Shown here: positions 2,618 to 60,292 of the stretch, in pieces
Numbering within the stretch: the first letter of the stretch is position 1
How the letters are laid out: the number at the start of each line of letters is the position of its first letter
Origin: Fimbriimonas sp.
Lineage (GTDB): Bacteria > Armatimonadota > Fimbriimonadia > Fimbriimonadales > Fimbriimonadaceae
NCBI GenBank assembly: GCA_031292555.1
Contig: JARLGV010000103.1
Span: 1 to 64,000 of the forward strand
Direction of reading: 5' to 3'
Length of the DNA stretch: 64,000 bases
Notes under the pieces: model-generated
Told to the model about the DNA's origin: nothing
Seen by the model: the letters and a program-made list of their open reading frames with translations, nothing else
The model's database searches: none
Made by a program: the position numbers and the translations under genes

Positions 2618-4912
2618 ATGCTATCAAACGCCAGGCTCTCAATCTTGAGGGCTGCGGGATTCTGGACCGTCGGTGGTTCGTTGCTTATGGCAACTGCCTC
2701 GGCCCAGGATGGGTACCGCGTCACTCAAGAGAATACGAACGTCTCCGATACAGGAGGGAACTCCGGACCTGTCCGGATGGCCCGCGTCGCCTACATCCAG
2801 GGCAGCGCCAGTTGGCGAACGGATGCCAACTCCGACTGGTCGGCTGCCTCAACCAATCTCCCATTACGAGAAGGAGCGTCGGTTTCGGTAAATAGCGGTG
2901 GACGGACGGAGATCCAGTTCGACGACGGCAGCCGGTTGCGTTTGGGAACGGGAACTGTCGTCACGCTACACACGCTTTACAGCGACAGCAACGGCGAGTT
3001 CACTGAACTAAAGCTCAATACCGGTTTGGCGTCTCTGACGCTGGTAAGCAAGATGTCGGTGTTTCAAGTTGACACGCCTTTGACATCGATCAAAGCTCAA
3101 GGGCCGGCGAACATCCGCATTGGCATTTCGAGCGGAGTCGAGGTCGCGGTACGAAAGGGACGCTGTGACTGTGCCGGAAGCCAAGGCGCCACGACCCTCA
3201 ATGGCGGCGACTATGTAAGCATGTCGAGCGGGTCATCCGCCATGCAAGTCGGGGCGCTGCCTCACGCCGACAACTGGGATCAGTTCAACGACAACCGCGA
3301 CGCCTCATACAACCAACCTGATCCTTACGTTCCTTCCAGTGTGGCGATCATGGCCGGCAACCTCAACAGCTTCGGCAGTTGGCACGCCAACGCTCGATAC
3401 GGGCATGTATGGCGACCGCGCGGCATGTACGCCGGATGGCGACCGTATCACGACGGCCACTGGGTTTGGGTCGATCCGTTCGGCTGGACCTGGGTCGGCG
3501 CCGAGTCATGGGGCTGGGCTCCTTACCACTACGGCAGTTGGGTTCACGACGGCGGCGGTTGGGGCTGGGCGCCCGGCCCCCGCCAGCAGTATTGGTCACC
3601 GGCCGTCGTTAGCTTTAGCACCTACAACGGCGCGGTTGCATGGGTCCCGCTGGCGCCAACTGAGATGGTCTATCCCGCGCAGATATCCTTCGGTTTTCGG
3701 AGCGGAGATTGGTCTCTCTCGTTCGCCATCGGCGGAGCCGCGGCTTACTACCCGGGTGGCCAGGGCTATGTTGTCGGCCGGCCGTGGAGAAACGGGTATC
3801 TGAATCGATCTTACAACGTGTACGACGGCAATCGAATCTCCGCTCTCTATGCAGGCGGGTACTCGGGCGCCGATAACCGATTCCAGCCGATCTATGGCCG
3901 CAGCGCCTTTGCGATCACAAGGACGACAAATGCCGGCTTCTCTGGTTCAGGCAGGTACCTTTCCGGGACCACGGTCGACGCGACCAATTTCCAGAGAGGG
4001 CACTCGTTTGGCGCAGGAAGAGGTGCGCCAAACGTCTTTGGACCGGCGAATGTCAGGCCGTCAAGGGCTTCTTTCACATCGTCAAGGTCGTTTGGCGCAA
4101 GACGTCCTTCGGCCACCATCATGGAACGATCCATCGTTCGCGCACGGATTCCTGCCGAGGTATCAAGGAACAGCAGGCCGATGGCACGCTCTGTCGAGCC
4201 ATCGAATCGAGCGGCGACGGTGACTCGCGTTCCCCGGGGCGGGAACTTCCGGCCGGTCGGAAGGTCGACACCTGCGAATTTGGCAAATGGCAGAGGCAAC
4301 CTTGGCAGGTCTGGCGGCATCGCACGGGCAATTCCCGGCAAGCCAGTCAACTCCGGCCCAAGGAACGTAAGGCGTGCCAACCCGACGAGAACCAGCAATC
4401 CGGGTAGGACAAATGCGGTGAGGCCGCCTAACGCCGGAAACAGGAACCGTTCGGGCGGGACCATTCGCAAGGATCAGTCGGCCCCCAAGCAACAGCGTTC
4501 AGCACCCCGGCAGCAGCGCAATACTCTCCAGCATCGCTCCGCACCGCGGCAACAGCGCGCCGCTCCCCAACAGCGCTCGGCGCCCCGGCAGCAGCGCGCC
4601 GCTACCCAGCAGCGCTCGGCACCGCGACAGCAGCGCGCTGCTAGCCAACAGCGCTCGGCGCCTCGGCAACAGCGCGCTGCTAGCCAACAGCGCTCCGCAC
4701 CGCGGCAACAGCGCGCCGCTCCCCAGCGTCGCTCCGCACCGCGGCAGCAGCGCTCGGCGCCCCGGCAGCAGCGCAATGCTCCCCGGCAGCGCTCCGCTCC
4801 TCAGCAACGTTCCGCTCCCAAGCAGCAGCGCGCCGCGCCGCAGCAGAAACGGAGCACCGGCGGGAACCAAAAGCGCTCCGGCGGCGGGAACAACCAACGC
4901 CGTGGCGGCTAA
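2618..4912 (+). CDS. Secreted FecR-domain protein with DUF6600 Trp-rich repeats and Q/R-rich tail
   Basis: 764 aa from the ATG at 2618, chosen because it directly begins a signal peptide ending at ATASAQ; a GTG at 2555 is possible. A FecR-type beta-jellyroll follows (VAYIQGSASWR, then LREGASVSVNSGGRTEIQF and DGSRLRLGTGTVVTLH). Next is a Trp/Gly/Tyr-rich DUF6600 region with repeated motifs such as DGHWVWVDPFGWTWVG and WGWAPYHYGSWV. The last third is low-complexity and very basic (Arg, Gln, Pro, Ser, Ala), ending in Gly/Asn/Arg-rich sequence. In this FecR-plus-DUF6600 group the function is unknown; an envelope or extracellular matrix role is an inference. Confidence 0.8.
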   Translation: MLSNARLSILRAAGFWTVGGSLLMATASAQDGYRVTQENTNVSDTGGNSGPVRMARVAYIQGSASWRTDANSDWSAASTNLPLREGASVSVNSGGRTEIQFDDGSRLRLGTGTVVTLHTLYSDSNGEFTELKLNTGLASLTLVSKMSVFQVDTPLTSIKAQGPANIRIGISSGVEVAVRKGRCDCAGSQGATTLNGGDYVSMSSGSSAMQVGALPHADNWDQFNDNRDASYNQPDPYVPSSVAIMAGNLNSFGSWHANARYGHVWRPRGMYAGWRPYHDGHWVWVDPFGWTWVGAESWGWAPYHYGSWVHDGGGWGWAPGPRQQYWSPAVVSFSTYNGAVAWVPLAPTEMVYPAQISFGFRSGDWSLSFAIGGAAAYYPGGQGYVVGRPWRNGYLNRSYNVYDGNRISALYAGGYSGADNRFQPIYGRSAFAITRTTNAGFSGSGRYLSGTTVDATNFQRGHSFGAGRGAPNVFGPANVRPSRASFTSSRSFGARRPSATIMERSIVRARIPAEVSRNSRPMARSVEPSNRAATVTRVPRGGNFRPVGRSTPANLANGRGNLGRSGGIARAIPGKPVNSGPRNVRRANPTRTSNPGRTNAVRPPNAGNRNRSGGTIRKDQSAPKQQRSAPRQQRNTLQHRSAPRQQRAAPQQRSAPRQQRAATQQRSAPRQQRAASQQRSAPRQQRAASQQRSAPRQQRAAPQRRSAPRQQRSAPRQQRNAPRQRSAPQQRSAPKQQRAAPQQKRSTGGNQKRSGGGNNQRRGG
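4530..4850 (+). repeat. Coding tandem repeat (12-aa unit) in the FecR/DUF6600 protein tail
   Basis: Roughly nine degenerate copies of a 36-nt unit encode QRSAPRQQRAA plus one of P, T or S. Copies differ mainly at third positions and at the variable residue, which implies expansion followed by drift. The same DNA read backwards gives Cys-rich frames, which are artefacts. Confidence 0.75.
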
Positions 4913-10773: not shown

Positions 10774-11463
10774 CTAGACGGCTACCAAGGACCATAGGAC
10801 CGTGAGTTCGTTGATCACCAACACGACTCCCGGTGCGGCCCAAGCAACCCGGTCGGCCTCCTCCCTCTCCGCAATCGTCCGCACTTTTCCGCTTAGCGTC
10901 ACCGTGTTTCCTGAGGTCTCGACGGTTACTTTGTCGGCATCGAGCATCGAGTTGCGCCTAAAGGCGGCATGGATATCCGATTCGATCGTTACGGCCGAGA
11001 GCTTTGGTTTGATGGCGATCAGATTGGAGACGCCTTTCACTCCCATTAGGTAGTGAACTGCCTGCTCCGCAGCGTTCTTCTGATTCCACCATTCGACATC
11101 ACCCTCTAGCGTAATCCAACCATCGCGAACGGTTACCTTGACTGCATCGTCTGGAACCGCAGGCGACAACTTGATTTGGTGGCCAGCGGAAGCGGCAATG
11201 TCCCCATCGTTTCGGGTCATCGATCCCGGTAGTCTGACTTGAATGGCGTCGGCGATGGAATGGACTCCTGTAACTCGCTTAGCCGCGCGAATTGCATTCG
11301 CTTTCTCCCAATAGGTAGACGTATAGCCATTGAGGGTAACAGTTCCGCCTTTTACCAAGACCCCAATATCGCTGGTCTTCACGCCTGGCTCATACTTGAG
11401 CTCAGATAGAATGTCGTCCTTTAGGTCAGCATCGCTGGTGCCTCTATTCATTGAAGTGTTCAT
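10774..11463 (-). CDS. Triple-BON-domain protein (paralogue 1)
   Basis: 229 aa from the ATG at 11463, which has AGAAGGA upstream; the longer frame is not supported. Three BON domains follow one another at about 12-75, 85-150 and 158-225. Typical strands are [38 protein letters not shown] and VETSGNTVTLSGKVRTIAER. There is no signal peptide, unlike OsmY, so it may be cytoplasmic. It has the same length and layout as the protein at 13699-14388. In the family such proteins are linked to osmotic and general stress; the exact ligand is unknown. Confidence 0.85.
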   Translation of the reverse strand: MNTSMNRGTSDADLKDDILSELKYEPGVKTSDIGVLVKGGTVTLNGYTSTYWEKANAIRAAKRVTGVHSIADAIQVRLPGSMTRNDGDIAASAGHQIKLSPAVPDDAVKVTVRDGWITLEGDVEWWNQKNAAEQAVHYLMGVKGVSNLIAIKPKLSAVTIESDIHAAFRRNSMLDADKVTVETSGNTVTLSGKVRTIAEREEADRVAWAAPGVVLVINELTVLWSLVAV

Positions 11464-11616
11464 CTGGGTCCTTCTTCCTTGCTGAGATATTCTCGGCATG
11501 CGAATAGATGGCTTGTCGAGAACCCCATTTGTTCCACCAAATTGCCAGACTTCCGGCACCCGGCATAGGAGGTTTGAATTCACGGTCGGGCGCCAGTCCA
11601 AGGACGCGATGCAGAG

Positions 11617-13698: not shown

Positions 13699-14388
13699 CT
13701 AGGCGCCCAACCAGCCCCAGTGGACGGTGAGCATGTTGTCAACGGAGGTTACGCCCGGTGCAGCCCAAGCCGTTCGTCCCGCTTCCTCTTTCTCGGCATA
13801 GGTTCGCACCTTGCCGCGCAGCGTTACGCAGTTTCCCGACGTCGAGACGGCGACCTCGTTGGAATCCAGCATGGCGCTTCTCCTGAATGCGGCCTGAATG
13901 TCCGATTCGATCGCCATAGCGGAGACCTTGGGTTTGATGCATATCTCGTTGGAGACCCCCTTGACTCCCGAGAGGTAGTGAACCGCGCTCTCGGCGGCGG
14001 TCTTCTGATACCACCACTCGACGTCGCCCTCCAACGTGATCCAGCCTTCGCGGACGGTTACCTTGACCGCATCGGCGGGGACAGAGGGAGACCATTTGAT
14101 TTGCTGGCCTGCCGCCTCTGCAACGTCTCCATCGGTGCGGTTCAGTGAGCCGGGCAGCTTGACTTGAATGTCATCGGCAATGGCGTTGACGCCAACAACA
14201 CGCTTGGCCGCGCGTACGGCATGCGACTTCTCCCAATAGCTGGTCACGAACCCATTGAGGGTTACTGTTCCATCCTTTACGAGGACTCCGATATCGCTGG
14301 TTTTGACGCTAGGCTCATACTTGAGCTCGGATAGGATGTCATTCTTGAGGTCAACGTCGGTGATGCACTTACTGGTCGTTGAGTTCAT
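13699..14388 (-). CDS. Triple-BON-domain protein (paralogue 2)
   Basis: 229 aa, exactly the length of the protein at 10774-11463, and alignable along its whole length. Shared stretches include [28 protein letters not shown]-type helices and [20 protein letters not shown] lies about 11 nt before the ATG. Three BON domains occur in the same places. The pair arose by duplication, and the genes between them (HicA-baeRF, dps) have no duplicates. No signal peptide. Confidence 0.87.
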
Positions 14389-14682
14389 GGGTGGGTTTGC
14401 TCCTTTGCTGCGTTCGTCGCGGCATGCCAGCTTTGGGCGTCGAAAGCGATCCTTGTTCCACCCGAAGCCGGCGTTACGTTCCCAGCATGGGAGGCTCTTG
14501 AGCCGATGAACAAGTCCACCTCTGCCCTGTCAGCGCAACGGCTGTCAGCCCTCCAGAGACAGCGACCAGCGTCAAGGCATCAGCAAGGGCGCATGTTATC
14601 TGAGACTCGCCGAAACTCGGTATCGTGGGGGCATGTGGCAACGCGCGAAGGTGATCCGGCAGACCTCGCTACGAGGTCGGTG

Positions 14683-27944: not shown

Positions 27945-28256
27945 CTAAGGCCTTTCTGAAGTGCTTGTGGGGCCGGCCCGTGACGAAGCTAGTGCTGCGA
28001 TCATCGGGCCCACTGTATCTACAATCACTTGGCACGTCCCTCTGAGGTCGTCCAATGGCGAAACGACTCCGTGCTTTCTTACAAATGCGTTCCATCGGAC
28101 TGCAACCGTTGGGTCGCCCCAGTAGGCTCCCGTTAGCCCCAGAGGAATCTCCCGGGGGAGTTCGGTTCCTCGCCTGTTGAACGTGGCGTGAATGGCACGA
28201 CCATGTGTCTCGTGGTTGAGATCGGCATCTCGCATGGGAAATATGTTTGCAAGGTC
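27945..28256 (-). pseudogene. C-terminal relic of an AbiEii-type toxin gene
   Basis: The minus-strand frame encodes about 100 residues that align without gaps to the C-terminus of the intact AbiEii at 37390-38295: HETHGRAIHATFNRRGTELP, WGDPTVAVRWNAFVRK, LRGTCQVIVDTVGPMIAALA. The DNA also matches. The first about 200 residues, including the nucleotidyltransferase motifs, are missing. Homology stops about 50 bp before a copy of the 3' half of tRNA-Pro at 28304-28341, the same order as in the intact island. Confidence 0.85.
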
Positions 28257-28568: not shown

Positions 28569-29855
28569 ATGGGAGATTGGACGGCTGAGCGTGTTCTGGC
28601 GCTGGCTCCCGACCCTGCTTCCGTTGGCCCGGCACGCGAGTTGTCCAGCCCCGCCAAATGGGTGACGAGCGGGGCGTCGAATGTGGCGGTTTGGGGAGAG
28701 GCGAAGGGCAGCGGGGCCAAGCCGTACCAAGTCGCCGTCGATTTCAACGGCCCGGCCTTCAAGTGCTCTTGCCCAAGCCGGAAAATCCCGTGCAAGCATG
28801 TTCTGGGTCTGATGCTGCTCTTTTCCAGTGGCATCGTGCCGGCCGCCCCGATGCCCGAGTGGGCAAGCGAATGGCTGGAGAAGCGGACCGAAAAGGCAGC
28901 CGTTCAAGCGGCGAAAGCGACAAGCCCCAAGGTGGACGCCAATCCTGAGGCGGCCGCCAAGCGGGCGGAAGGGAGATGGGAGAAGGTCCTGACCGGTCTG
29001 GATGAGTGCGAAGCGTTCCTCATGGATATCGCCGGCCAAGGGTTGCTCTCCGCTCATTCCACTCGAAGTTGGGACCAGATGGCTGCCCGCATGGTCGATG
29101 CCCAAGCTCCCGGAGTTGCGCGGCGCCTCAAGCGAATCGGGGAGAAGGTAGGGATCGGCTCCGACTGGGGTCTGGAGGTGGCGGGAGAACTCGGGAGGCT
29201 TGAACTCCTGATCGAAGGATCCCGTCGCATCGACGCCTTACCGCCAGAACTGAGTGCAGATTTACGTTCCACGCTTGGCATCCCGGTTCGAAAGGAAGAT
29301 CTGGACGGAGAACGGGTCTCCGACGTTTGGGATGCACTGGGTCAGGCAACCGAAAGGGAGGATCGAGTCACGACGATTCGAACCTGGCTGCGGGGTCGAA
29401 CTTACGGACGATGGGCGATGCACCTCGGGTTTTCCGTCGCGGGGCAACCGCCGGAACAACAGCTCCTCTCGGGTGTTTCCTTCACTGCGGAGTTGGTGTT
29501 CTACCCGTCGGCTTGGCCGCTGCGCGTTCAGATCGGCCAAACCACGCCGGCGAAGTTCGAACCTCTTCATCGAGGCAGATGGGCAGATTCGGTTGAAGAC
29601 ATGGCATCCGCCCTTTCCGCGCACCCTTGGATCGAGCAAATTCCTGCTTGCTTGAGTCAGGCTCGTCTGGGGCGGACAGACTCCACGTTGTGGGCGATCG
29701 ATGGGGAAGGCGCCGCCATGCCGATTCGGGCCGGCGATCTGTGGGAGCTCTTGGCGCGGACAGGCAATGAGCCTTGCGAGTTGTTCGGCGAGTTCGACGG
29801 AACGATGTTTCGCCCCCTCGGCGCATGGGGCGATTGGGGTTACTTACCGATATGA
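28569..29855 (+). CDS. SWIM zinc-finger protein of the MoxR-DUF5682 operon
   Basis: 428 aa. A SWIM-type zinc site occurs at about residues 64-77 (FKCSCPSRKIPCKHVLGLML, a CxC...CxH arrangement), a fold used for DNA, RNA or protein binding. The long C-terminal part is Trp-rich and of unknown fold. It is the first gene of a tightly packed operon; its stop overlaps the next start by 4 nt (ATGA). The start has no clear ribosome site. Confidence 0.85.
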   Translation: MGDWTAERVLALAPDPASVGPARELSSPAKWVTSGASNVAVWGEAKGSGAKPYQVAVDFNGPAFKCSCPSRKIPCKHVLGLMLLFSSGIVPAAPMPEWASEWLEKRTEKAAVQAAKATSPKVDANPEAAAKRAEGRWEKVLTGLDECEAFLMDIAGQGLLSAHSTRSWDQMAARMVDAQAPGVARRLKRIGEKVGIGSDWGLEVAGELGRLELLIEGSRRIDALPPELSADLRSTLGIPVRKEDLDGERVSDVWDALGQATEREDRVTTIRTWLRGRTYGRWAMHLGFSVAGQPPEQQLLSGVSFTAELVFYPSAWPLRVQIGQTTPAKFEPLHRGRWADSVEDMASALSAHPWIEQIPACLSQARLGRTDSTLWAIDGEGAAMPIRAGDLWELLARTGNEPCELFGEFDGTMFRPLGAWGDWGYLPI

Positions 29856-31174
29856 AGGCGTTTACCGACTTGGCGGCAGCCTTGCAGATCGGAGTTCGGC
29901 GATCTCCTTTTGTCGCATCGGGTTACTTGGGCGAATGGCATGGCGTGTCCGGCGAGCAATCTGCCCTTGCCGAGGCGGGAGCGCTCGACCTTATGCGACG
30001 TGCAGGCACATGTTCCCGCACGTCGATCCTTCCGCTTCTGGCTTCTCCCCGACAGGAACAAGGTATCGCAACGAAATCTGAGGGTGTGCTGATGGCTGCG
30101 ATCGACCTAGGCTTACGTGACGTGGTGCTGGAGTGGGCACGGGCAGCCGCAGAGAAAGGCTTGGTAGCACCGCCCGCCGCATTGGTGAAGCTTATTGAGT
30201 GGACGCCCAAGCACCCCAGGGCATTGGGGCCGATTCTGGGGGCCCGGGGCCAGTGGCTTGCGGCATGGATGGACGTGGAGATCGTTGCGCCCGAAGCTCT
30301 CCCCGACCCGGCCGAGCTCCGGGACAAGCTCCAATCCGATTGGGGCGATCTGGACTGGAAGCAGCGGGCCGAAGGCATTGTGAAGCTCAGGGCGTCGCTT
30401 GTGCCGTCCGACGAAGCGCTTCTCACGGTGGCACTCGCCGATCGACGTAAAGAGGTGCGCGAATCGGCGGCCGAATGCCTGGCAAACCTGGAGGAGAGCA
30501 AGTTCGCCCGCGAGTTGCGCGCCTTCGCAAAGGGCCGGCTACGGGTGGAGCGGAAGTTTCTCTCAAAGTCGCTCTTGGTAATCGCCCCAAGCGCGGAAAG
30601 ACTGCCCAAGGAACTTCCCCGGACCGTTCAGCCCGGGTCATTTGGGGCAAAGGCCCACGCGCTGTACGACCTGTTGAGAGCTATTCGCCCTTCCTTCTGG
30701 GAGGAGGAGACGGGCCTCTCCCCGGCCGAGCTGATCGAATTGGCGAAGCAAACGGACTACTCGGGCGCAGTGATCGCGGGTTGGCAAGACGCCGCCTCGT
30801 CGGTCCTATGGGATCAGAAGTGGGTCGATGCGCTTTTTCAGCACGCCATCGCTCTAAACACCCGCCCAATGATTCGAGTCTTGGCGCCGATGGCATCCCA
30901 TTCGGTGTATGAAGCGGCCTTTCGAACCCGACTGAAGGCCAACGAGTACATGCCGATGCGACCGAATCGATTCTCGCCTGAGTTCTCGAAACTCGTAGTG
31001 GACGCGGTGAAGCAGCAAAGCGTCGTGGTCGACCCTGAGATGTCGCGCTGCCTCGATCGATCCGTGCTTCCCCTGCTGCGAGACCCATGGGACAATTCTG
31101 CGGATGCCATGCGCGAACGCTGGTTCCGGTCCCTCGACCTTCGAACAAGACTTCTAGACAGCCTCGATCCGTGA
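29852..31174 (+). CDS. DUF5691 protein of the MoxR-DUF5682 operon
   Basis: 440 aa from the ATG at 29852, which overlaps the SWIM gene stop (ATGA). All-helical, with HEAT-like pairs such as LLTVALADRRKEVRESAAEC and LANLEESKFARELRAFA. The family DUF5691 recurs next to SWIM, MoxR and VWA genes in other genomes; no biochemical role is known. Probably a scaffold for the ATPase; this is an inference from the repeats. Confidence 0.8.
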   Translation: MKAFTDLAAALQIGVRRSPFVASGYLGEWHGVSGEQSALAEAGALDLMRRAGTCSRTSILPLLASPRQEQGIATKSEGVLMAAIDLGLRDVVLEWARAAAEKGLVAPPAALVKLIEWTPKHPRALGPILGARGQWLAAWMDVEIVAPEALPDPAELRDKLQSDWGDLDWKQRAEGIVKLRASLVPSDEALLTVALADRRKEVRESAAECLANLEESKFARELRAFAKGRLRVERKFLSKSLLVIAPSAERLPKELPRTVQPGSFGAKAHALYDLLRAIRPSFWEEETGLSPAELIELAKQTDYSGAVIAGWQDAASSVLWDQKWVDALFQHAIALNTRPMIRVLAPMASHSVYEAAFRTRLKANEYMPMRPNRFSPEFSKLVVDAVKQQSVVVDPEMSRCLDRSVLPLLRDPWDNSADAMRERWFRSLDLRTRLLDSLDP

Positions 31175-31181
31175 GTCAACA

Positions 31182-32264
31182 ATGAGCCAACCCGTAATGC
31201 GCGCGCACGCCGAACAGGCGTTCCAACATGAATTGGCGGAGCTAGCCAAGTCCGACACTCGTCCTCGTCCGCCCAATTGGAAGCTGTCTCCCTGGGCCGT
31301 TGCCGATTACGTCTCCGGCTGCACCTTGCCCAACGGCTTCGTCGTCAGTCCGAAGTACATCGGCAAGCGGACGATCATCGAAATATCGGTCGCTACCCTT
31401 GCCACCGATCGTGCGCTTCTGCTGTTGGGAGTTCCGGGGACCGCAAAAACTTGGCTCTCTGAGCACCTGGCAGCGGCGACCTCCGGCGATTCGACGTTGT
31501 TGATCCAGGGCACCTCCGGGACCAGCGAGGAGACGCTGAGATACGGCTGGAATTACGCGAAGCTATTGGCTGAGGGGCCGTCGAGGGCGGCTCTCGTGCC
31601 GTCGCCGATCATGCGGGCGATGGAGCAGGGCAAGATCGCCCGGGTGGAAGAACTCACCCGCATCCCATCCGACGTTCAGGACGCGCTCATCACGGTGCTC
31701 TCGGAGAAGACGCTGCCGATCCCGGAGTTGAACGACGAAATGCAGGCGAGCAAAGGGTTCAACGTCATCGCCACCGCCAACGATCGAGACCGGGGCGTCA
31801 ACGATCTCTCCTCGGCATTGAGGCGCCGATTCAATTCGGTGCACCTTCCGCTGCCGGAAACCGTCGAGGAAGAGACCGAGATCGTGCGCCAACGCTCCGA
31901 GGCGATTGGACGGGCTTTGGAACTGCCGGCCGAGCCGCCCGCGCTGCACGATATCCAGAGAATCGTCACGATCTTCCGCGAGTTGAGAGACGGGATGACC
32001 CTGGACCGAAAGTCGAAGCTGAAGGTTCCCTCCGGCACTCTCAGTACGGCGGAAGCGATCTCGGTGGTTAACAACGGCTTGGCGATGGCCGCCCACTTCG
32101 GCGACGGCAGACTCCGTGCTTCGGATATCGCGAGCAGCCTGACCGCCGCTGTCGTCCGGGACGCCACCCAGGACGGCTTGGTTTGGAAGGAGTACCTGGA
32201 AGTCGTGGTCAAAGAACGCGACGGATGGAAAGACCTATACCGCGCATGCAGAGAACTCCAGTAG
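31182..32264 (+). CDS. MoxR-family AAA+ ATPase
   Basis: 360 aa. Walker A is GVPGTAKTW at about residue 85, Walker B is IARVEELTRIPSDVQDAL, sensor 1 is NVIATANDRD, and the arginine finger lies in LRRRFN. MoxR ATPases pair with VWA proteins to remodel or load metal into partner proteins. A VWA partner occurs two genes downstream. It starts 7 nt after the DUF5691 stop and overlaps the next gene by 19 nt, so the order is fixed and the operon is translationally coupled. Confidence 0.95.
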   Translation: MSQPVMRAHAEQAFQHELAELAKSDTRPRPPNWKLSPWAVADYVSGCTLPNGFVVSPKYIGKRTIIEISVATLATDRALLLLGVPGTAKTWLSEHLAAATSGDSTLLIQGTSGTSEETLRYGWNYAKLLAEGPSRAALVPSPIMRAMEQGKIARVEELTRIPSDVQDALITVLSEKTLPIPELNDEMQASKGFNVIATANDRDRGVNDLSSALRRRFNSVHLPLPETVEEETEIVRQRSEAIGRALELPAEPPALHDIQRIVTIFRELRDGMTLDRKSKLKVPSGTLSTAEAISVVNNGLAMAAHFGDGRLRASDIASSLTAAVVRDATQDGLVWKEYLEVVVKERDGWKDLYRACRELQ

Positions 32265-34492
32265 GCGATCGAGTCCGGCTGTTTGGGATACGGCACCACG
32301 GGCCGGGTTCTGCCCGGTCGCTGGTGGCGGCCCTTGAAGAATGGCGCCCACAACTCCTAATCGTGGAAGGTCCGGTAGAGGCGACGGACGTGGTTCCGCA
32401 CCTTCTCGACGAGTCTGCGGCCACCCCGATCGCGATGCTGTTCTACGCGGTCGATACGCCCCGTTGGGCCTCGTACTACCCGTTGGCCGAGTTTTCCCCC
32501 GAGTTGCAGGCGTTCCGCTGGGCCGGCCGCAACCAATGCCCGATCCGGTTTATGGACCTGCCCGCGAGCGCCACCCTTGGGTTTTCGGAAACCGGCGGGA
32601 GCCGGTCCGACGCTCTGGATCAGGTCGCGGAGGCTTCGGAGTTCGATACGGTGGAGGAATGGTGGGAGCACTTGGTCGAGCGACGGTCAGACCCGTGTGA
32701 CCTCTTCGCGGGAATCGAATCCCTGATGGGCGCGCTTCGAGGTTCGGACGCGTCTGATACGCCGGATGCCGGCGAAAACGAATCCGAAGAGGCCGACGGA
32801 AGAAAGCCGATATCTCATGCCAGATATGAGGCGTTGCGCGAGGCACACATGCGGCGAACCGTTCGCGAGGCGCTGGCGGAAGGTTTTGAGCGGATCGCCG
32901 TCGTTTGCGGCGCATGGCACGTGCCGGCTCTGCGATCGCTTCCGCCGGAGAAGTTGGATAACGCCCTTCTGAAAGGTCTGCCCAAGCTCAAAATCCGCGG
33001 CACGGTCGTCCCCTGGACATTCGACCGCCTGACTTACGAGTCGGGCTATGGCGCCGGCGCAACGTCTCCCGCTTACTTCGACCTTGTCTTCCGAACGCCT
33101 CATGCCGACGTGCCGACGGCCTGGCTGCTCTCCGTTGCCCGTCTCATGCGAGAGGAGGATCTCGACGCATCGCCCGCATCCGTCATCGAAGCCGTAAGGT
33201 TGGCCGACGCGCTCGCCGGGCTGCGTGGCCGGCCACGTCCGGGACTCAGGGAGCTTGGCGAGTCGGCCGCATCGGTGCTAATTCGCGACCAAGCGATCTG
33301 GAGCCTCATCAATCGACGCCTCGTCGTCGGCGAGCAGATGGGCTCCGTGCCGGAGAACGCCCCTCAGACCTCCTTGCAGTCCGATTTGGCCGCCCTTCAG
33401 AAGCGGCTGAGATTGACGGTCGATGGAACCGATCGAAGGCTCGAACTCGATCTCCGCGGCGACATCGACCTCCAGCGAAGCCAACTCCTTCACCGGCTCA
33501 ACCTTCTCGGCGTCCCGTGGGGCTCTCACGAGCGGGTTGGAGGGAAGAAGGGTACGTTCCACGAGCACTGGCGCATCCGATGGGAACCGGAGTTGACGAT
33601 CTCGCTGATCGAAGCGGGCATCCACGGTAACACGGTCCTTGCCGCCGCCTCGAACTGCGCCATCGGTAAAGGGCAGATCGCCACCGACTTGTCGGAGATC
33701 GCGAACCTCGTCGAATGGGTGCTGACCGCCGACCTACCCGATGCGATCTCGCCTACGATCGCCAAGCTTGAGGAAATCGCGGCGACCCACGCCGACGTTG
33801 CCGGGCTGGCCGATGCGCTGCCTCCGCTGGCCGCCGTCGTACGATACGGCACGGTGCGCCGGACGAATGCCGACCAAGTGATGACGGTGCTCGATGCGAT
33901 CTTCACGCGGCTATGCGTAGGATTGCCGGGCGCTTGCGTTTCGCTGGACGATGACTCGGCCCATGTGATGGGCAAACGGCTGGACAGCGTGAACGTCGTC
34001 GTCGGACTCTTTGAAGACTCGGAGAAGCGGACTCAGTGGCTCGTCGCCCTGGCGGCCATCGCGCACCTTCAAGGAGGTCATCCGTTTCTCGAGGGCAAAG
34101 CGGAACGGCTGCGGTTCGACCTTGGCGAGGTTGACGGCAACCACTTGAGCCTGCGGCTACGTCAGGCGGTGTCTTCGGGAGCCGAAACAAGGGAAACCGC
34201 CGCCTTTGTGGAAGGGCTCCTCGACGGCCCCGGCGCGATTTTGCTTCACCAGGAACACCTGTTCCGGGCCGTGGACGAATGGATCGTGCAGATTGACGGA
34301 TCTGTCTTCGATGAGGTCCTGCCCTTGATTCGAAGGTCGGTTTCGCTGTTCACGAAGGCCGAACGGCGACAGATCGGCGAACGGGTTGCCGGGCACCTCC
34401 CTGGGCAGATTCAAACCGGGGAGTTCGACGCGGAGAGGGCGAAGCGGGTTCTTCCGGTTGTTCGCCAGCTATTGGGGATACCTCATGAGTGA
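32246..34492 (+). CDS. DUF5682 protein
   Basis: 748 aa from the ATG at 32246 (19-nt overlap with MoxR). The N-terminus reads VRLFGIRHHGPGSARSL with His17/His18, then LLIVEGP (Glu41), and later VVCGAWHVPAL (His225). This spacing of a His-His-Gly start, an acidic residue and a late G-x-x-H resembles the EreA/ChaN/TraB-TIKI class of metal-dependent or esterase-like enzymes, so I infer a catalytic domain; this has not been tested. The rest is helical. No transmembrane segments. Confidence 0.85.
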   Translation: MQRTPVGDRVRLFGIRHHGPGSARSLVAALEEWRPQLLIVEGPVEATDVVPHLLDESAATPIAMLFYAVDTPRWASYYPLAEFSPELQAFRWAGRNQCPIRFMDLPASATLGFSETGGSRSDALDQVAEASEFDTVEEWWEHLVERRSDPCDLFAGIESLMGALRGSDASDTPDAGENESEEADGRKPISHARYEALREAHMRRTVREALAEGFERIAVVCGAWHVPALRSLPPEKLDNALLKGLPKLKIRGTVVPWTFDRLTYESGYGAGATSPAYFDLVFRTPHADVPTAWLLSVARLMREEDLDASPASVIEAVRLADALAGLRGRPRPGLRELGESAASVLIRDQAIWSLINRRLVVGEQMGSVPENAPQTSLQSDLAALQKRLRLTVDGTDRRLELDLRGDIDLQRSQLLHRLNLLGVPWGSHERVGGKKGTFHEHWRIRWEPELTISLIEAGIHGNTVLAAASNCAIGKGQIATDLSEIANLVEWVLTADLPDAISPTIAKLEEIAATHADVAGLADALPPLAAVVRYGTVRRTNADQVMTVLDAIFTRLCVGLPGACVSLDDDSAHVMGKRLDSVNVVVGLFEDSEKRTQWLVALAAIAHLQGGHPFLEGKAERLRFDLGEVDGNHLSLRLRQAVSSGAETRETAAFVEGLLDGPGAILLHQEHLFRAVDEWIVQIDGSVFDEVLPLIRRSVSLFTKAERRQIGERVAGHLPGQIQTGEFDAERAKRVLPVVRQLLGIPHE

Positions 34493-35609
34493 GAACGAGA
34501 GGCTTCGGAGGTGGCGTTTGGTGCTGGGCGGCGGGGAATCCGACGGCACCGGATATGGTCTCGAAACAATCGACCTCGCCAAGGACTCGGCGCTGGAAGC
34601 CCTGTACGATCAGCAGCGGAAGGGCGGGCTCGGGCCGTCGTCTCCGAACGTCTCCCGCTGGCTTGGCGACATCAGGACCTACTTTCCGCAATCGGTCGTG
34701 CAGGTGATGCAGAAGGATGCGATGGACCGGCTAGACCTAAAGAGCATGCTGCTCGAACCAGAGAGCCTGCAGGCGGTTCAGCCCGATGTCCATCTTGTGT
34801 CAACGCTGCTCTCTTTGAGCCGGGTTTTGCCGGCAAGAACTCGCGACACCGCACGCCAGGTCGTGCGCGCCGTCGTGGAGGATCTTGAGAAACGACTCGC
34901 CAGCCCTTTGCGCCAAGCCGTTTCCGGAAGTCTGGCTCGAAGCGTCCGGAACCGCCGTCCGAAGTTGCGGGAGGTCGACTGGAACGCGACGATCAAGGCG
35001 AACCTGCGCCACTATCAGGCTGAACTCGGAACGGTGATTCCCGAAACGATGATCGGTTTCGGCCGACGCGGGCAATCGCTCAAGAACGTCATTCTGTGCC
35101 TCGACCAGAGCGGTTCGATGGCCTCGTCGATCGTTTACGCAGGGGTCTTCGGCGCTACGTTGGCTTCGATCCCGGCTCTCAAGACCAGCGTCGTTTGTTT
35201 CGATACGTCGGTCGTGGACTTGACTGGCCTCTTGTCCGACCCCGTCGAACTGCTGTTCAGCGTGCAGTTGGGCGGCGGGACCGATATCGAGCAGGCGCTC
35301 CGATACTGCCAGTCGCTCGTCCGCTCCCCGAGCGATACGATCCTGCTCCTGATAAGCGACCTGATCGAAGGAGGCGACAACGACAAGTTCCTCAAGCGAG
35401 CCGCCGATATCAAGCAATCGGGAGTGAACTTGGTCTGCCTCCTCGCGCTCAGCGATGAGGGCCGTCCGATGTTCCACGCCAAGAACGCGGCCCACCTGGC
35501 ATCCCTCGATATCCCCGCCTTTGCCTGCACTCCCGAGCACTTCCCGGAACTGATGTCCCGGGCCATCAAGGGGCAAGTCCTGGATCCGGAGCAATTGTCA
35601 GGCAAATGA
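34485..35609 (+). CDS. VWA-domain protein of the MoxR operon
   Basis: 374 aa from the ATG at 34485, overlapping the DUF5682 stop by 8 nt. A helical N-terminal region of about 195 residues precedes a von Willebrand A domain with an intact MIDAS: DQSGSMASS (DxSxS), a later Thr/Asp in GGGTDIEQAL and ISDLIEGG. The canonical MoxR-VWA pair suggests that the VWA protein presents a substrate to the ATPase. It is the last gene of the five-gene operon. No hydrophobic segment, so it is cytosolic. Confidence 0.9.
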   Translation: MSENERLRRWRLVLGGGESDGTGYGLETIDLAKDSALEALYDQQRKGGLGPSSPNVSRWLGDIRTYFPQSVVQVMQKDAMDRLDLKSMLLEPESLQAVQPDVHLVSTLLSLSRVLPARTRDTARQVVRAVVEDLEKRLASPLRQAVSGSLARSVRNRRPKLREVDWNATIKANLRHYQAELGTVIPETMIGFGRRGQSLKNVILCLDQSGSMASSIVYAGVFGATLASIPALKTSVVCFDTSVVDLTGLLSDPVELLFSVQLGGGTDIEQALRYCQSLVRSPSDTILLLISDLIEGGDNDKFLKRAADIKQSGVNLVCLLALSDEGRPMFHAKNAAHLASLDIPAFACTPEHFPELMSRAIKGQVLDPEQLSGK

Positions 35610-37249: not shown

Positions 37250-37393
37250 CGAGAATGGCTGCCCTCGATCGGTGCGAATCGCTCTGCTCGGGCAATCGCA
37301 GATATTGCTCGCGGCTACGGTGTCCACCGAAGAACCATCGAAAAAACCCGAGATGGCGAGATCTGGAAGACCGCCAGACAACGAGCCTCCTAG
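37250..37393 (+). pseudogene. Remnant of an HTH DNA-binding protein
   Basis: A 47-codon frame ends with ARAIADIARGYGVHRRTIEK and TRDGEIWKTARQ, a pattern common at the C-terminus of HNH-type and related DNA-binding proteins (arrays like 'IA-YGV--RTI--I--G-IWK'). There is no start codon, and its end overlaps the AbiEii stop by 4 nt. Only the pattern supports it. Confidence 0.4.
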
Positions 37394-38295
37394 AGCTCTT
37401 CAGCGTAGCTTGCAAGTCCTTTCTGACCCGAAGCCAGTGCAGCGAGAATCGGACCCACGGTATCTGCAATCACTTGGCAGGTCACGCTGAGATCGTCCAC
37501 GGGTGGAATGATTTCGTTCTTTCTCACAAATGCGCGCCAACGAACTGCAACCATAGGGTCGCCCCAGAAGGTTTCCGTAAGCGCCACGGGAATTTCTAGG
37601 GGGAGTTCACTTCCTCGCCTTTTGAACGTGGCTTGAATGGCGCGCCCAAGCGTCTCGTGGCTGAGATCGGTATCACGCACCAGTTTTGACAGGTCGAAGA
37701 AGTCCTTCATTCGACTGTTTGCCAAACCCAGTCGAGCCATTGCTTCAAGCTTTTCGGCGAAGGAAGTCTCCATGTTGTAGCATTTCATTTTTGCCCCCGG
37801 AACATCGCGTATCATCCCTGGCAATTCGACTTCGTTTGGTTTGGGGGTGACCGCGTCGCCGAATCCGATATCGATCTGTAGAGGAATTCGGGCCTTGCCG
37901 ATGTATCCGAGCAGAGTTACGCGTACTCCGCCGTATGACTGTTCCTCGCGGATTGCCTCTGCGACAATTGAGTCGGGATCAAAGATCACGCCGTCTTGTT
38001 CGCAGGCTATATTCGCAATTTCTGTGAAAATACTGCGAAGCTCGTTTGCGTCGGCGCTTGTACCGAGCAGATCGAAATCTTTGGTTGGACGGTGCATTTC
38101 ACCGAGCCAGAACAAGAACATCGTTGCGCCCTTGAGAAGAAAGCCGTCTGCATGGCGAGACTGAGTGAGCCGATAGAGGAGCCGGAATCCTACGTAGCGG
38201 ACGAGAACCGTGTTGTATGTTTCGCCAGTGCGTTTAGCCTCGTTCAGAAGCCGAGCCAGGATCGACTTCGTGGCTGGAGTCTCGACCGAGATCAC
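37390..38295 (-). CDS. abiEii: AbiEii nucleotidyltransferase toxin
   Basis: 301 aa. Motifs of the AbiEii/AbiGii family occur in order: GFLLKGATMFLFWLGEMHRP, TKDFDLLG (the D-x-D catalytic pair), PLQIDIGFGD, NMETSFAEKLEAM and SRMKDFFDL. AbiEii is the toxin of a type IV toxin-antitoxin and abortive-infection system that targets tRNA acceptor ends or other NTP-dependent processes. Its start overlaps the end of AbiEi by 4 nt. A C-terminal relic lies at 27945-28256. Confidence 0.92.
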   Translation of the reverse strand: MISVETPATKSILARLLNEAKRTGETYNTVLVRYVGFRLLYRLTQSRHADGFLLKGATMFLFWLGEMHRPTKDFDLLGTSADANELRSIFTEIANIACEQDGVIFDPDSIVAEAIREEQSYGGVRVTLLGYIGKARIPLQIDIGFGDAVTPKPNEVELPGMIRDVPGAKMKCYNMETSFAEKLEAMARLGLANSRMKDFFDLSKLVRDTDLSHETLGRAIQATFKRRGSELPLEIPVALTETFWGDPMVAVRWRAFVRKNEIIPPVDDLSVTCQVIADTVGPILAALASGQKGLASYAEEL

Positions 38296-38891
38296 GAAAT
38301 CAGCGCCTCGATGTAAGGGCGCATCACCTTGTCCACCCGATCAATCTTCGCGTAATGCATCAGCTCTTCTGCTGTGAACTTGCGCTCGCGCCATCCTTCT
38401 CTCAGCGCCTCCACGGCCACGTCATACCCGACCTTCGACCTCATGCGGAAGCAGTCGGCTACTGTCTTGGCTGCATTGTAAATCTTCACCCGCACTCCTT
38501 CGACTTCGTGCTCTTCCACACCCTCGGAGTAGTAAGGTTCCGTCAGGTGCGTGAGGCGGAGACGCGGATTCGTTTTCGGTTTCCAGGCCCCCGCGGGAAG
38601 TGCTACCCAGGTCTGGTAGGGAAGTTGGGTGCCGATTTGGTGATAGGCGAGTGCAGAGATGAGATTCACAACAGCGAGAGGCATAGCCTTTGATATTTCG
38701 GCCAGATCATGCCAGGGCGTGAGCTCGTGCTGAGGCACGGCGTACAGGCCACGACCGAACCGCTCCAGCTTCTGTGCGGCGACTAGACGCGTGACCTCCT
38801 GCGAATGGAAGCCTTCCGCCGTTAGCTCGCGTGCCCGTGTCACGCCGTGCCTTCGGACGAAATCAAGTATAAGGTCGTCGCGTCGCTTCAT
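38292..38891 (-). CDS. abiEi: AbiEi-type antitoxin with N-terminal winged helix
   Basis: 199 aa. The N-terminal winged helix-turn-helix (LILDFVRRHGVTRARELTAE, then RFGRGLYAVPQHEL) matches AbiEi_4-type antitoxins, which bind an inverted repeat in their own promoter. The C-terminal domain carries AAKTVADCFRMRSKVGYDVA and EALREGWRERKF, the usual toxin-neutralising helices. The stop overlaps the toxin start (ATGA), so the pair is coupled. Confidence 0.9.
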   Translation of the reverse strand: MKRRDDLILDFVRRHGVTRARELTAEGFHSQEVTRLVAAQKLERFGRGLYAVPQHELTPWHDLAEISKAMPLAVVNLISALAYHQIGTQLPYQTWVALPAGAWKPKTNPRLRLTHLTEPYYSEGVEEHEVEGVRVKIYNAAKTVADCFRMRSKVGYDVAVEALREGWRERKFTAEELMHYAKIDRVDKVMRPYIEALIS

Positions 38892-57415: not shown

Positions 57416-60292
57416 TTGAGGTTTCGAATTCGCATCTCGTTGTGTCTAGCGGTTTTGGCATTGTTCTGCATGGCGATTGCCCGTGGGACAGCGCCTGTCC
57501 AGTCCAACGCGATTGGTCAACGCGAAGCTGCCAACAGTTTCCGGCCGGCAGACTATCAGAGCGGTTCACCGTGGCCCAAATTCCGTAACAACAGGCTCAA
57601 TACTGGTGTCGGCTCGGGCGGTGGCTCGAATGGAACGCAGAAGTGGCGGTTCGCAACAGGCTCTTTAATCGGCTGCTCCCCTACGATCGCGGCCGACGGA
57701 ACGGTCTACATCGGCTCGTTCGACCAGAGCTTGTATGCGGTGAATTCGGATGGGACGAAGAAGTGGAGTTTCCCGACCGGCAGCGTTGTTTGGTCCTCGC
57801 CGGCGATCGGCAAGGACGGCACGGTCTACGTTGGGTCAGAAGATAACAACCTCTACGCGCTGAACCCGGACGGAACCAAGAAGTGGAGCTACACGACAGG
57901 TGGCCCGATCTCTTCGTCGCCGAACATCGGGTCGGATGGGACGATCTACGTTGGATCGTGGGACAACAATCTATACGCGATCTCGTCTGCCGGCGCCAAG
58001 AAGTGGAGTTTTGCGGCGAAGAACTACGTCGGCTCGTCGCCCGCTGTTGGCTCGGACGGGACTGTCTATGTGGGATCGACGGACGGGAACGTGTACGCCG
58101 TAGGTGCGAATGGTTCTCTGAAGTGGAGCTTCGCGACCGGGGCACAGGTTTCGTCTTCGCCGGCGATCGGAGCGAACGGCACCATCTATATCGGCTCGAA
58201 TGACTTCAACCTGTACGCCATCAATCCGGATGGAACCAAGAAGTGGGCCTTCAAGACCGGCGATTCTGTGGTTTCCTCTCCCGCAGTCGGAACGGATGGA
58301 ACGATATATGTTGGGTCATCTGACTTCAACCTGTATGCGCTGAACCCGGACGGAACGCTCAAGTGGAGCTTTGCCGCCAACAACGGCGTAACATCATCCC
58401 CCGCCATTGGGTCGGACGGCACTATCTACTTTGCCTCGTCCGATTTCCACTTGTATGCCCTTGGAGCCGACGGGTCGGAGAAGTGGGCATTTCAAACCAA
58501 GAGCTATGTCGTTTCGTCTCCAGCGATTGGAGCGGACGGGACGGTTTTCATCGGGTCCAACGATGGCAGCCTGTATGCGGTCGGAACAGAGGGGAACAGT
58601 GTAAAGGCCAGCAAGCTGACTGTCAATCCTACGTCGGTCACGGGTGGCGCTTCCGCTACCGGGACGGTGACGCTCGTTTCGGCAGCGCCCGCCGGCGGCG
58701 ACGTTGTCAGTCTGTTGAGTGGAAGCACCAACGTCATGGTTCCACCCTTCGTGACGGTTCCGTCCGGCGCCACGAGCGCGACATTCACGATCGATACGAC
58801 CCTTCCGAGTACCACTACGAGCGGCGTGATTACGGCATCGTCCGGAGGCGTGAACGTCACGGCAACTTTGACGGTCGTCGGAGGGGCGATCGCGGGCGTT
58901 ACGTTGAACCCTGTGTCCGTCATCGGTGGATATGCTTCGGTTGGGCAAGTGAACCTTACGTCCGCTGCGGGAGCGGGAGGCGTGGTCGTGAACCTGTCGT
59001 CGAGCAGCAAGAACGCCACGGTGCCCCAGACCGTTACAGTCGCCTCGGGGAGCAAGACTGCGACCTTTACGGTTTCGACAAACGCGGTCGCCGCCACCGG
59101 TCAAGCCACTATCTCGGCGTCTGCAGGCGGTTCGACTCAGACAGCGGTCTTAACTCTGAACCCGTTCCTCGTGTCCTCGCTTTCGCTCAGTCCAGCCTCG
59201 GTGGTCGGAGGAAACTTGGCGACTGGAACAGTTACTCTGAACGGCAACGCACCCCAATCGGGCGTGACCGTCGCTATTTCCAGCAGTTCTGTCTCTGCCA
59301 GCGTGCCCTCAAAGGTGATCGTTCCGTCCGGCTCTTCGTCGGTGACTTTCACCGTTTCGACGATAGCGACCTCGACGTCGGTGGCCGCCTCGATTGTCGG
59401 GAGCTTGAACGGAACCAGCAAAGGGGCGACGCTGACGATCTCGCCGATCTCGGTTTCAAACGTCACCTTGAGTCCCTCCACCCTTTTAGGTGGCGCTCAG
59501 TCCACTGGTACGGTGAACCTGAATTCCGGCGCCCCGAAGGGCGGGACGATCATCCATCTGTCGAGCGGCGATAGATCTGTGACCGTTCCGGCTTCGGTGA
59601 CGATTCCGGTCGGCAAGACGAGCCTTGGGTTCTCGGTCAGGACGACTGCGGTGTCTACGCGTGCAACGGTGGCGATCACGGCGAAAACGGGAAGCGTGTC
59701 GGTCTCGGCAACCCTGACGATCAACCCTCCAAACCTGTCGTCTTTCTCGATCGCTCCCACAGCCGTCGTCGGAGGCACTTCGGCCACCGGTGCCGTGTCG
59801 ATCGACAATCCGGCTCCAACCGGCGGGATGGTCGTTCACCTCTTCTCGGCATCCAGCTCAGTGACGGTTCCCGCCACGATGACAATAGGTGCCGGGAAGA
59901 AGAGCGGGACGTTTATCGTCAAGACAGTGCCGGTAGCGAGTCAGGCGACTGTGACGGTTACGGCCGCCCTGAACGGCACAAACCGGACCGCCACTGTCGT
60001 CGTGAATTCTCCCGCCCTGAAATCGCTCTCTTTGACTCCGACCTCGGTGACCGGCGGTAAGACCTCGACCGGGACGGTGACGATCTCGTCGCCTGCGCCT
60101 TCCGGAGGATTGTCAGTTTCACTTTCAAGCAGCCTATCGTCGGCTACCGTTCCATCCAGTGTGACGATTGCAGCGGGAAAGACTACTTCGACGTTCAGCG
60201 TCAAGACCGCCAAGGTCACGTCGAAGTCGTCTGCAACGATCAGCGCGAACCGAGCCGGGGTGACGAAGACTGCCAAGCTGACCGTCTTGTAA
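57416..60292 (+). CDS. Secreted PQQ-type beta-propeller plus six Ig-like repeats (paralogue 2)
   Basis: 958 aa from a TTG start with AGGGAG 6 nt upstream. After a signal peptide (ISLCLAVLALFCMAIARG) come eight blades of about 40 aa, nearly identical in layout (SSPAIGKDGTVYVG, NLYALNPDGTKKWSF). Six Ig-like units of about 90 aa follow, each with VTGG or VVGG and VP(A/S)SVTI. It matches the protein at 20346-23330 in domain order and repeat number, so the two are paralogues. The catalytic residues of PQQ dehydrogenases are absent. It is convergent with the GH16 gene, with only 4 nt between them. Confidence 0.88.
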   Translation: MRFRIRISLCLAVLALFCMAIARGTAPVQSNAIGQREAANSFRPADYQSGSPWPKFRNNRLNTGVGSGGGSNGTQKWRFATGSLIGCSPTIAADGTVYIGSFDQSLYAVNSDGTKKWSFPTGSVVWSSPAIGKDGTVYVGSEDNNLYALNPDGTKKWSYTTGGPISSSPNIGSDGTIYVGSWDNNLYAISSAGAKKWSFAAKNYVGSSPAVGSDGTVYVGSTDGNVYAVGANGSLKWSFATGAQVSSSPAIGANGTIYIGSNDFNLYAINPDGTKKWAFKTGDSVVSSPAVGTDGTIYVGSSDFNLYALNPDGTLKWSFAANNGVTSSPAIGSDGTIYFASSDFHLYALGADGSEKWAFQTKSYVVSSPAIGADGTVFIGSNDGSLYAVGTEGNSVKASKLTVNPTSVTGGASATGTVTLVSAAPAGGDVVSLLSGSTNVMVPPFVTVPSGATSATFTIDTTLPSTTTSGVITASSGGVNVTATLTVVGGAIAGVTLNPVSVIGGYASVGQVNLTSAAGAGGVVVNLSSSSKNATVPQTVTVASGSKTATFTVSTNAVAATGQATISASAGGSTQTAVLTLNPFLVSSLSLSPASVVGGNLATGTVTLNGNAPQSGVTVAISSSSVSASVPSKVIVPSGSSSVTFTVSTIATSTSVAASIVGSLNGTSKGATLTISPISVSNVTLSPSTLLGGAQSTGTVNLNSGAPKGGTIIHLSSGDRSVTVPASVTIPVGKTSLGFSVRTTAVSTRATVAITAKTGSVSVSATLTINPPNLSSFSIAPTAVVGGTSATGAVSIDNPAPTGGMVVHLFSASSSVTVPATMTIGAGKKSGTFIVKTVPVASQATVTVTAALNGTNRTATVVVNSPALKSLSLTPTSVTGGKTSTGTVTISSPAPSGGLSVSLSSSLSSATVPSSVTIAAGKTTSTFSVKTAKVTSKSSATISANRAGVTKTAKLTVL

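What the first reader, a model, noticed from the sequence alone, without database searches (positions are those of the whole stretch)
28569..35609. Five-gene translationally coupled operon: SWIM, DUF5691, MoxR, DUF5682, VWA
Four of the five junctions overlap or nearly touch (ATGA, 7 nt gap, 19-nt overlap, 8-nt overlap), so the order is fixed. MoxR and VWA form the known ATPase/adaptor pair. DUF5682 carries HH-G, E and a later G-x-x-H, which I read as a possible EreA/ChaN/TraB-like catalytic domain. SWIM adds a nucleic-acid or protein-binding module. The set is conserved in other bacteria, but I know of no described function. It looks like a conflict or protein-remodelling system with an enzymatic effector.
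Basis: partly seen in the sequence, partly recalled or inferred. Interest (0 to 1): 0.72.

Follow-up and report, generated by a model that had tools for sequence, protein, structure and literature searches.

The report
MoxR/VWA chaperone operon with TraB-like enzyme
A five-gene bacterial operon, related to the unstudied E. coli genes yehL-yehM-yehP-yehQ, pairs an ATP-driven protein-remodelling machine with a protein that has the fold and invariant active-site residues of the TraB/erythromycin-esterase enzyme superfamily, which gives a widespread system of unknown function its first testable chemistry.

Summary
Five + strand genes (SWIM, DUF5691, MoxR, DUF5682, VWA) lie at 28569-35609, and all four junctions overlap or nearly touch. 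Of 67 relatives with enough flank, 53 keep all five on one strand; these span many phyla. DUF5691 never occurs without DUF5682 in 291 genomes of the phylum. The unit is the wider form of the E. coli yehL-yehM-yehP-yehQ locus, the uncharacterised YehL subfamily of MoxR, which is present in 5162 of 5426 E. coli genomes.

The main new result is that the DUF5682 N-domain (residues 1-270) has the TIKI/TraB/EreA/ChaN fold. The twelve best structural matches are all members of that superfamily (TraB Z 10.0, ChaN 8.8, EreC 7.5; first unrelated match 5.3). Its signature residues H17, E41, R198, G222 and H225 are invariant in 87 of 87 sequences. The rest of the protein is mostly a helical repeat scaffold.

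The best reading is a MoxR-VWA remodelling machine that feeds or controls a TIKI-type hydrolase, with SWIM and DUF5691 as client-recognition or scaffold parts. Fold and motif are shown by computation; hydrolysis and substrate are inferred. The 'conflict system' reading is not supported.

The parts
28569..29855 (+). SWIM zinc-finger protein, 428 aa; CxCx6CxH at residues 66-77; C-terminal ~300 aa of unknown fold with invariant R136, D153, R174, D177, R319
   Evidence: Pfam SWIM 1.4e-05; conservation over 62 and 42 homologues
29852..31174 (+). DUF5691 protein, 440 aa; few invariant polar residues, scaffold-like; fused to SWIM in 7 relatives
   Evidence: Pfam PF18944 3e-48; ATGA overlap with SWIM; fusions
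31182..32264 (+). MoxR AAA+ ATPase of the YehL subfamily, 360 aa; Walker A GVPGTAKT, Walker B position occupied by E156-E157
   Evidence: Pfam AAA_5 4.9e-39; phmmer to E. coli YehL 3.8e-69; 79/79 conserved
32246..34492 (+). DUF5682 protein, 748 aa: N-terminal TIKI/TraB/Ere-fold domain plus C-terminal, mostly helical repeat scaffold
   Evidence: Pfam PF18934 1.5e-218; homologue of E. coli YehM; AlphaFold2 pLDDT 88.6
32246..33061 (+). TIKI/TraB/Ere-fold domain of DUF5682 (residues 1-272) with H17, E41, R198, G222, H225
   Evidence: AlphaFold2 pLDDT 90.4; VIA-align to TraB 10.0, ChaN 8.8, HopBA1 7.7, EreC 7.5
34485..35609 (+). VWA protein (CoxE-like), 374 aa, intact MIDAS: D207, S209, S211, T266, D292
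   Evidence: Pfam VWA_CoxE 1.4e-46; phmmer to YehP 1.1e-65; MIDAS 77/77

Best explanation
The operon encodes one protein-remodelling machine of the YehL-type MoxR kind. A MoxR ATPase (probably a hexameric ring) and its VWA co-chaperone bind a protein client through the VWA MIDAS site. ATP hydrolysis remodels the client, or the DUF5682 protein itself. DUF5682 carries an N-terminal TIKI/TraB/Ere-type hydrolase domain on a C-terminal helical scaffold and most likely performs metal-independent hydrolysis (a peptide or ester bond) with H17 and E41 activating water, R198 stabilising the intermediate and H225 completing the site. SWIM and DUF5691, which are fused in some bacteria and so probably touch, most likely recognise the client and dock it. 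It probably serves protein quality control or maturation of a specific protein rather than phage defence. Shown by computation: operon, conserved partnership, fold, invariant residues. Inferred: complex formation, catalysis, order of action, substrate.
For: Five genes kept together on one strand in 53/67 relatives of many phyla; no other recurring neighbour. DUF5691 above cut-off in 22/291 genomes of the phylum, all among the 35 with DUF5682 (Fisher p 2e-24 with no correction for kinship); 7 of 8 sampled genomes, most with DUF5682 away from the operon, carry DUF5691. The top 12 structure matches of the DUF5682 N-domain are all TIKI-superfamily entries; 7w5z_E is named 'TraB family protein'. 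G14, H17, E41, R198, G222, H225 align with PrgY, YbaP and the genome's own TraB; H17-to-E41 spacing of 24 equals H21-to-E45 in PrgY. H17, E41, R198, G222, H225 invariant in 87/87. EreC uses H50, E78, R261, H289 (PMC7979712); RRSP uses 2His/2Glu plus an Arg (PMC6254334). MIDAS and Walker A invariant; in NorQ/NorD the ATPase and MIDAS are both needed to remodel the client (PMC9976466).
Against: No sequence search finds a solved relative of DUF5682, and Foldseek E-values are weak (best 1.3e-2). The residue equivalent to Ere E47 / RRSP E3900 is absent (no acidic residue just before H17); some TIKI-fold proteins are not active hydrolases (PMT lacks the motif). The MoxR Walker B Asp is Glu in all relatives, so ATP hydrolysis is not certain. 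No complex was modelled. E. coli lacks DUF5691, so that part is not essential to every form.
Confidence: 0.55

Rival explanations
1. DUF5682 is not an enzyme but a peptide- or cofactor-binding client or adaptor with a TIKI fold; MoxR-VWA simply assembles a complex in which DUF5682, DUF5691 and SWIM are structural.
For: Some fold relatives bind ligands or lack the site: ChaN is described by its PDB entry as binding haem, PMT lacks the catalytic motif. Ere's first Glu is missing here. Most of DUF5682 is helical scaffold.
Against: The signature residues H17, E41, R198 and H225 are invariant in 87/87 sequences from many phyla, including E. coli at 25% identity, which is more than a binding pocket usually needs.
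Confidence: 0.27
2. It is an anti-phage or other conflict system of the MoxR-VWA ternary type, with DUF5682 as toxic effector.
For: MoxR-VWA pairs occur in described conflict systems (PMC7159879) and as CRISPR-linked ternary genes (PMC10910872). Distribution is patchy: 35/291 genomes of the phylum, 5 of 20 in the genus including the window's own. An AbiE toxin-antitoxin pair lies 1.8 kb downstream.
Against: Effectors vary in those systems, here composition is constant. No PADLOC family fits; few neighbours are defence genes. No viral copies. 5162/5426 E. coli genomes carry it, almost always on the chromosome. The tree clusters by phylum: 17 label changes against 37 when shuffled.
Confidence: 0.1
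3. Cofactor-insertion chaperone like NorQ/NorD or CoxD/CoxE, maturing one metalloenzyme encoded elsewhere in the genome.
For: VWA is CoxE-like; MoxR-VWA pairs commonly mature metalloenzymes.
Against: No metalloenzyme or any other gene recurs beside the operon in about 80 loci; known maturation pairs often lie next to their client, such as norQ and norD beside norCB.
Confidence: 0.08

Closest known systems
E. coli yehL-yehM-yehP-yehQ (YehL subfamily of MoxR)
   Same: Homologous MoxR (3.8e-69), VWA (1.1e-65) and DUF5682 (1.2e-33; Pfam 2.4e-98) proteins in one operon with a SWIM protein.
   Different: E. coli order is MoxR-DUF5682-VWA-SWIM; no DUF5691; the SWIM protein shows no detectable similarity to the window's beyond the SWIM motif family.
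TIKI/TraB/EreA/ChaN superfamily (TraB/PrgY, Tiki, erythromycin esterases, ChaN, RRSP, HopBA1)
   Same: DUF5682 N-domain has the same fold and the GxxH...E...R...GxxH residues.
   Different: Carries a ~475-residue C-terminal part, mostly a helical scaffold, and is tied to a MoxR/VWA machine; lacks Ere's E47 equivalent; sequence similarity is below normal search thresholds.
NorQ/NorD, CoxD/CoxE, RavA/ViaA MoxR-VWA chaperones
   Same: AAA+ MoxR plus VWA with intact MIDAS; presumably the same remodelling chemistry.
   Different: Different subfamily; extra enzyme-like DUF5682, SWIM and DUF5691; Walker B Glu-Glu instead of Asp-Glu.
MoxR-vWA ternary conflict systems (VMAP, iSTAND, beta-propeller) of Kaur et al. 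2020, PMC7159879
   Same: MoxR plus vWA plus further partners in one operon.
   Different: bpMoxR match below cut-off (22.2 vs 27); no variable effectors; SWIM, YehL and DUF5682 are not mentioned in that paper.

Membership tests
YehL-type MoxR locus (E. coli yehL-yehM-yehP-yehQ) | MoxR ATPase closest to YehL | tested here: met
   phmmer 3.8e-69 to YehL; shared EE-[LIV]-T-R Walker B signature in 79/79 including YehL. No tree of all MoxR subfamilies was made.
YehL-type MoxR locus (E. coli yehL-yehM-yehP-yehQ) | Linked DUF5682 and VWA homologues | tested here: met
   YehM is DUF5682 (2.4e-98), YehP is VWA_CoxE (2.3e-72); direct matches 1.2e-33 and 1.1e-65
YehL-type MoxR locus (E. coli yehL-yehM-yehP-yehQ) | SWIM protein in the operon | tested here: met
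   SWIM in both, though the rest of the protein is not detectably alike
TIKI/TraB/EreA/ChaN superfamily | Fold: parallel beta-sheet core flanked by helices, matching solved members | tested here: met
   Top 12 matches all members, Z 10.0 to 5.6, next 5.3 unrelated; AlphaFold2 pLDDT 90.4. Z under 8 is not significant singly; the evidence is the unbroken run.
TIKI/TraB/EreA/ChaN superfamily | Conserved GxxH, E, R and GxxH residues in order | tested here: met
   H17, E41, R198, G222, H225 in 87/87, G14 in 83/87; aligned to PrgY/YbaP/TraB
TIKI/TraB/EreA/ChaN superfamily | Sequence-profile similarity at normal significance | tested here: inconclusive
   hhalign pairwise E 8e-5 over 37 columns, probability 61; Pfam TraB only in 2/56 members at best 0.044
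TIKI/TraB/EreA/ChaN superfamily | Hydrolase activity and side-chain pocket geometry | not testable with these tools
   No coordinates or assays available
MoxR-VWA chaperones (general) | Intact MIDAS in VWA and Walker A / Arg residues in MoxR | tested here: met
   77/77 for MIDAS; 79/79 for Walker A and R216, 78/79 for R215
MoxR-VWA chaperones (general) | Canonical Walker B Asp-Glu | tested here: not met
   E156-E157 in 79/79; shared by YehL itself, so not a reason to leave the MoxR family, but ATP hydrolysis needs testing
MoxR-vWA ternary conflict systems | VMAP, iSTAND or propeller third component and variable effector domains | tested here: not met
   No such Pfam domain in the five proteins; constant composition
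Catalogued anti-phage defence systems | Match to PADLOC models | tested here: not met
   Only IetA at 0.004, an AAA+ cross-match

The most novel reading that the evidence does not exclude
The operon is a previously unrecognised ATP-dependent proteolytic or hydrolytic machine: a MoxR/VWA unfoldase or recruiter coupled to a metal-independent TIKI-type hydrolase (DUF5682/YehM), with SWIM and DUF5691 as substrate receptors. It would be built unlike Clp, Lon, FtsH or the proteasome and would be present in E. coli K-12 itself.
Probability: 0.25. Interest if true: 0.85.

Novelty: new member of a known kind. Interest (0 to 1): 0.5.

Why it matters
The YehL subfamily of MoxR ATPases was named on sequence and gene neighbourhood (PMC3893208), and I found no paper in the library describing a function for yehL-yehM-yehP-yehQ. 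Placing DUF5682/YehM in the TIKI/TraB/Ere superfamily, with its likely catalytic residues identified and invariant, turns a set of 'unknown function' proteins into a testable hypothesis in a laboratory workhorse strain. If DUF5682 is an active peptidase, this would be a new kind of AAA+-coupled protease.

Tried and rejected
PADLOC and NCBIfam scans of the five proteins gave nothing useful. The PDB sequence search with DUF5682 profiles gave only chance matches. Foldseek with the full 748-residue model was dominated by helical repeats, so the N-domain was folded alone. The first TraB profile (3 sequences) was too thin for profile comparison; a wider one worked better. A conserved sixth neighbour was sought and not found. 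Defence-island association was sought by scanning 115 nearby ORFs: few and generic hits, with no matched control set run. A possible link to RtcR was a single case with no pattern and was dropped. A phage location was considered: no viral contigs, and the only 'phage' record is an unverified fragment with RarA-like and Hsp70-like ORFs, read as bacterial. Promoter and terminator scans found no more than chance. Literature searches for yehL/M/P/Q returned author names and genome announcements only.
Full report
What is there. Five genes on the + strand at 28569-35609 encode SWIM, DUF5691, MoxR, DUF5682 and VWA proteins. A pattern scan found no more promoter- or terminator-like sites in the region than chance.

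The window lies in an Armatimonadota genome, judged from its closest named relatives. Profiles built from the window proteins were run on all ORFs of these loci. Among the 67 loci with enough sequence on both sides, 53 carry all five genes on one strand around DUF5682, from Actinomycetota, Bacteroidota, Cyanobacteriota, Pseudomonadota, Chloroflexota and other phyla. Seven carry SWIM and DUF5691 as one ORF (both domains confirmed by Pfam in L036), which suggests that these two proteins act together. No sixth gene recurs. In 291 genomes of the phylum, DUF5682 occurs in 35 and DUF5691 (above cut-off) in 22, all within the 35. In eight genomes picked mostly because the local operon looked incomplete, seven carry DUF5691. 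The genomes with DUF5682 but without DUF5691 are mostly a second, divergent lineage. One of them (L014) has the order MoxR, DUF5682, a 431-aa protein without a Pfam match, VWA, SWIM.

Relation to E. coli. E. coli K-12 has yehL (MoxR), yehM (DUF5682), yehP (VWA) and yehQ (SWIM) as four consecutive genes. Direct matches between the window proteins and YehL, YehM and YehP are 3.8e-69, 1.2e-33 and 1.1e-65. SWIM does not detectably match YehQ outside the zinc-finger family, and E. coli has no DUF5691. YehL gives its name to a MoxR subfamily (PMC3893208). The E. coli operon is present over at least 80% of its length in 5162 of 5426 complete genomes, nearly always on the chromosome. So the locus is a member of a known, uncharacterised kind; I found no paper on its function.

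DUF5682. An AlphaFold2 model of the whole protein has mean pLDDT 88.6 and shows an alpha/beta N-terminal domain followed by a mostly helical C-terminal part whose best matches are HEAT-like solenoids. The N-terminal domain alone (residues 1-272, pLDDT 90.4) gave twelve top structural matches that are all members of the TIKI/TraB/EreA/ChaN superfamily: three TraB entries at Z 10.0, ChaN 8.8, HopBA1 7.7, EreC 7.5 and 7.1, BcR135 and a related entry 6.7-5.9, RRSP-type entries 6.6 and 5.6. The first unrelated entry scores 5.3. That the top entry is a TraB protein was checked by its molecule name. Z-values below 8 are not significant one by one; the weight lies in the unbroken run of one superfamily. 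Foldseek E-values were weak and sequence searches against solved structures found nothing.

Independently of the model, an alignment of the window domain and YehM with PrgY, E. coli YbaP and this genome's own TraB protein leaves only ten invariant columns, and six of them are G14, H17, E41, R198, G222 and H225: the GxxH, E, R, GxxH pattern that I know from the literature on the superfamily. The H17-E41 spacing of 24 is the same as H21-E45 in PrgY. Pairwise profile comparison aligns this stretch at E 8e-5. In 87 distinct DUF5682 sequences, including E. coli and the divergent lineage, H17, E41, R198, G222 and H225 never vary. H18 is invariant in that set but is Leu in a further Clostridia-like sequence (L107), so H17 is the better candidate for the catalytic histidine. 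In EreC the proposed base is H50, with E78, R261 and H289 (PMC7979712); in RRSP two His and two Glu are essential for activity, an Arg is needed too, and no metal is needed (PMC6254334). DUF5682 has counterparts of four of these; the extra Glu beside the first His has no acidic counterpart.

MoxR and VWA. MIDAS residues (D207, S209, S211, T266, D292) are invariant in 77 sequences, and MoxR Walker A in 79; the Walker B Asp is always Glu. In NorQ/NorD the MIDAS site is needed for the client but not for binding the ATPase, and ATP hydrolysis drives remodelling (PMC9976466). The same division of labour is the simplest assumption here.

How it most likely works. VWA (through its MIDAS) and SWIM-DUF5691 (through a zinc finger and a scaffold) hold a client protein, the MoxR ring remodels it, and the DUF5682 TIKI domain hydrolyses a bond in it or is itself switched on by the remodelling. 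The partnership, fold and residues are shown by computation; the physical complex, the reaction and the client are inferred.

Why not a conflict system. Composition is fixed across phyla with no swapping effector. A scan of 115 nearby ORFs gave few, generic PADLOC hits and ordinary metabolic and regulatory Pfam families, though no matched control set was scanned. Viral contigs hold none, and the single 'phage' record reads as a bacterial fragment. Plasmids hold only 36 records with a copy among 72,556. The DUF5682 tree groups by phylum, with 17 label changes against 37 in shuffles, although transfers have happened. The E. coli form is nearly universal in its species. The patchy presence in Armatimonadota and a neighbouring AbiE pair leave the idea possible but unlikely.

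Noticed in passing
window 37390-38891 (-) and 27984-28234 (-): An intact AbiEi/AbiEii type IV toxin-antitoxin pair lies 1.8 kb downstream, and the 3' end of a second, broken AbiEii lies just upstream of the operon; 251 bp at 81% identity in direct orientation flank the operon, as if it had been inserted at or near an AbiE locus.
   Followed up: partly
window 31182-32264: The YehL-type MoxR proteins have Glu-Glu where other MoxR proteins have Asp-Glu in Walker B, in 79 of 79 sequences.
   Followed up: partly
L107 (MT835988.1): A public record named 'Bacteriophage sp.' carries MoxR-DUF5682-VWA with RarA-like and Hsp70-like ORFs; it looks like a mislabelled bacterial chromosome fragment. Its DUF5682 reads GIRHL, so H18 is not universal.
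   Followed up: yes
L014 6917-8212 (-): A 431-aa protein without a Pfam match sits between DUF5682 and VWA in the E. coli-like version of the operon, possibly the counterpart of DUF5691.
   Followed up: no
L001 4475-11912: Upstream of yehL in E. coli lie yehF (PF05406), the pseudogene yehH and yehI (DUF4132); this association was not seen in other loci.
   Followed up: no
window 10826-11501 and 13751-14427; 57626-58578; 4489-4846: Other internal repeats in the window: a 73% identical 680-bp pair and tandem-like repeats inside long ORFs.
   Followed up: no
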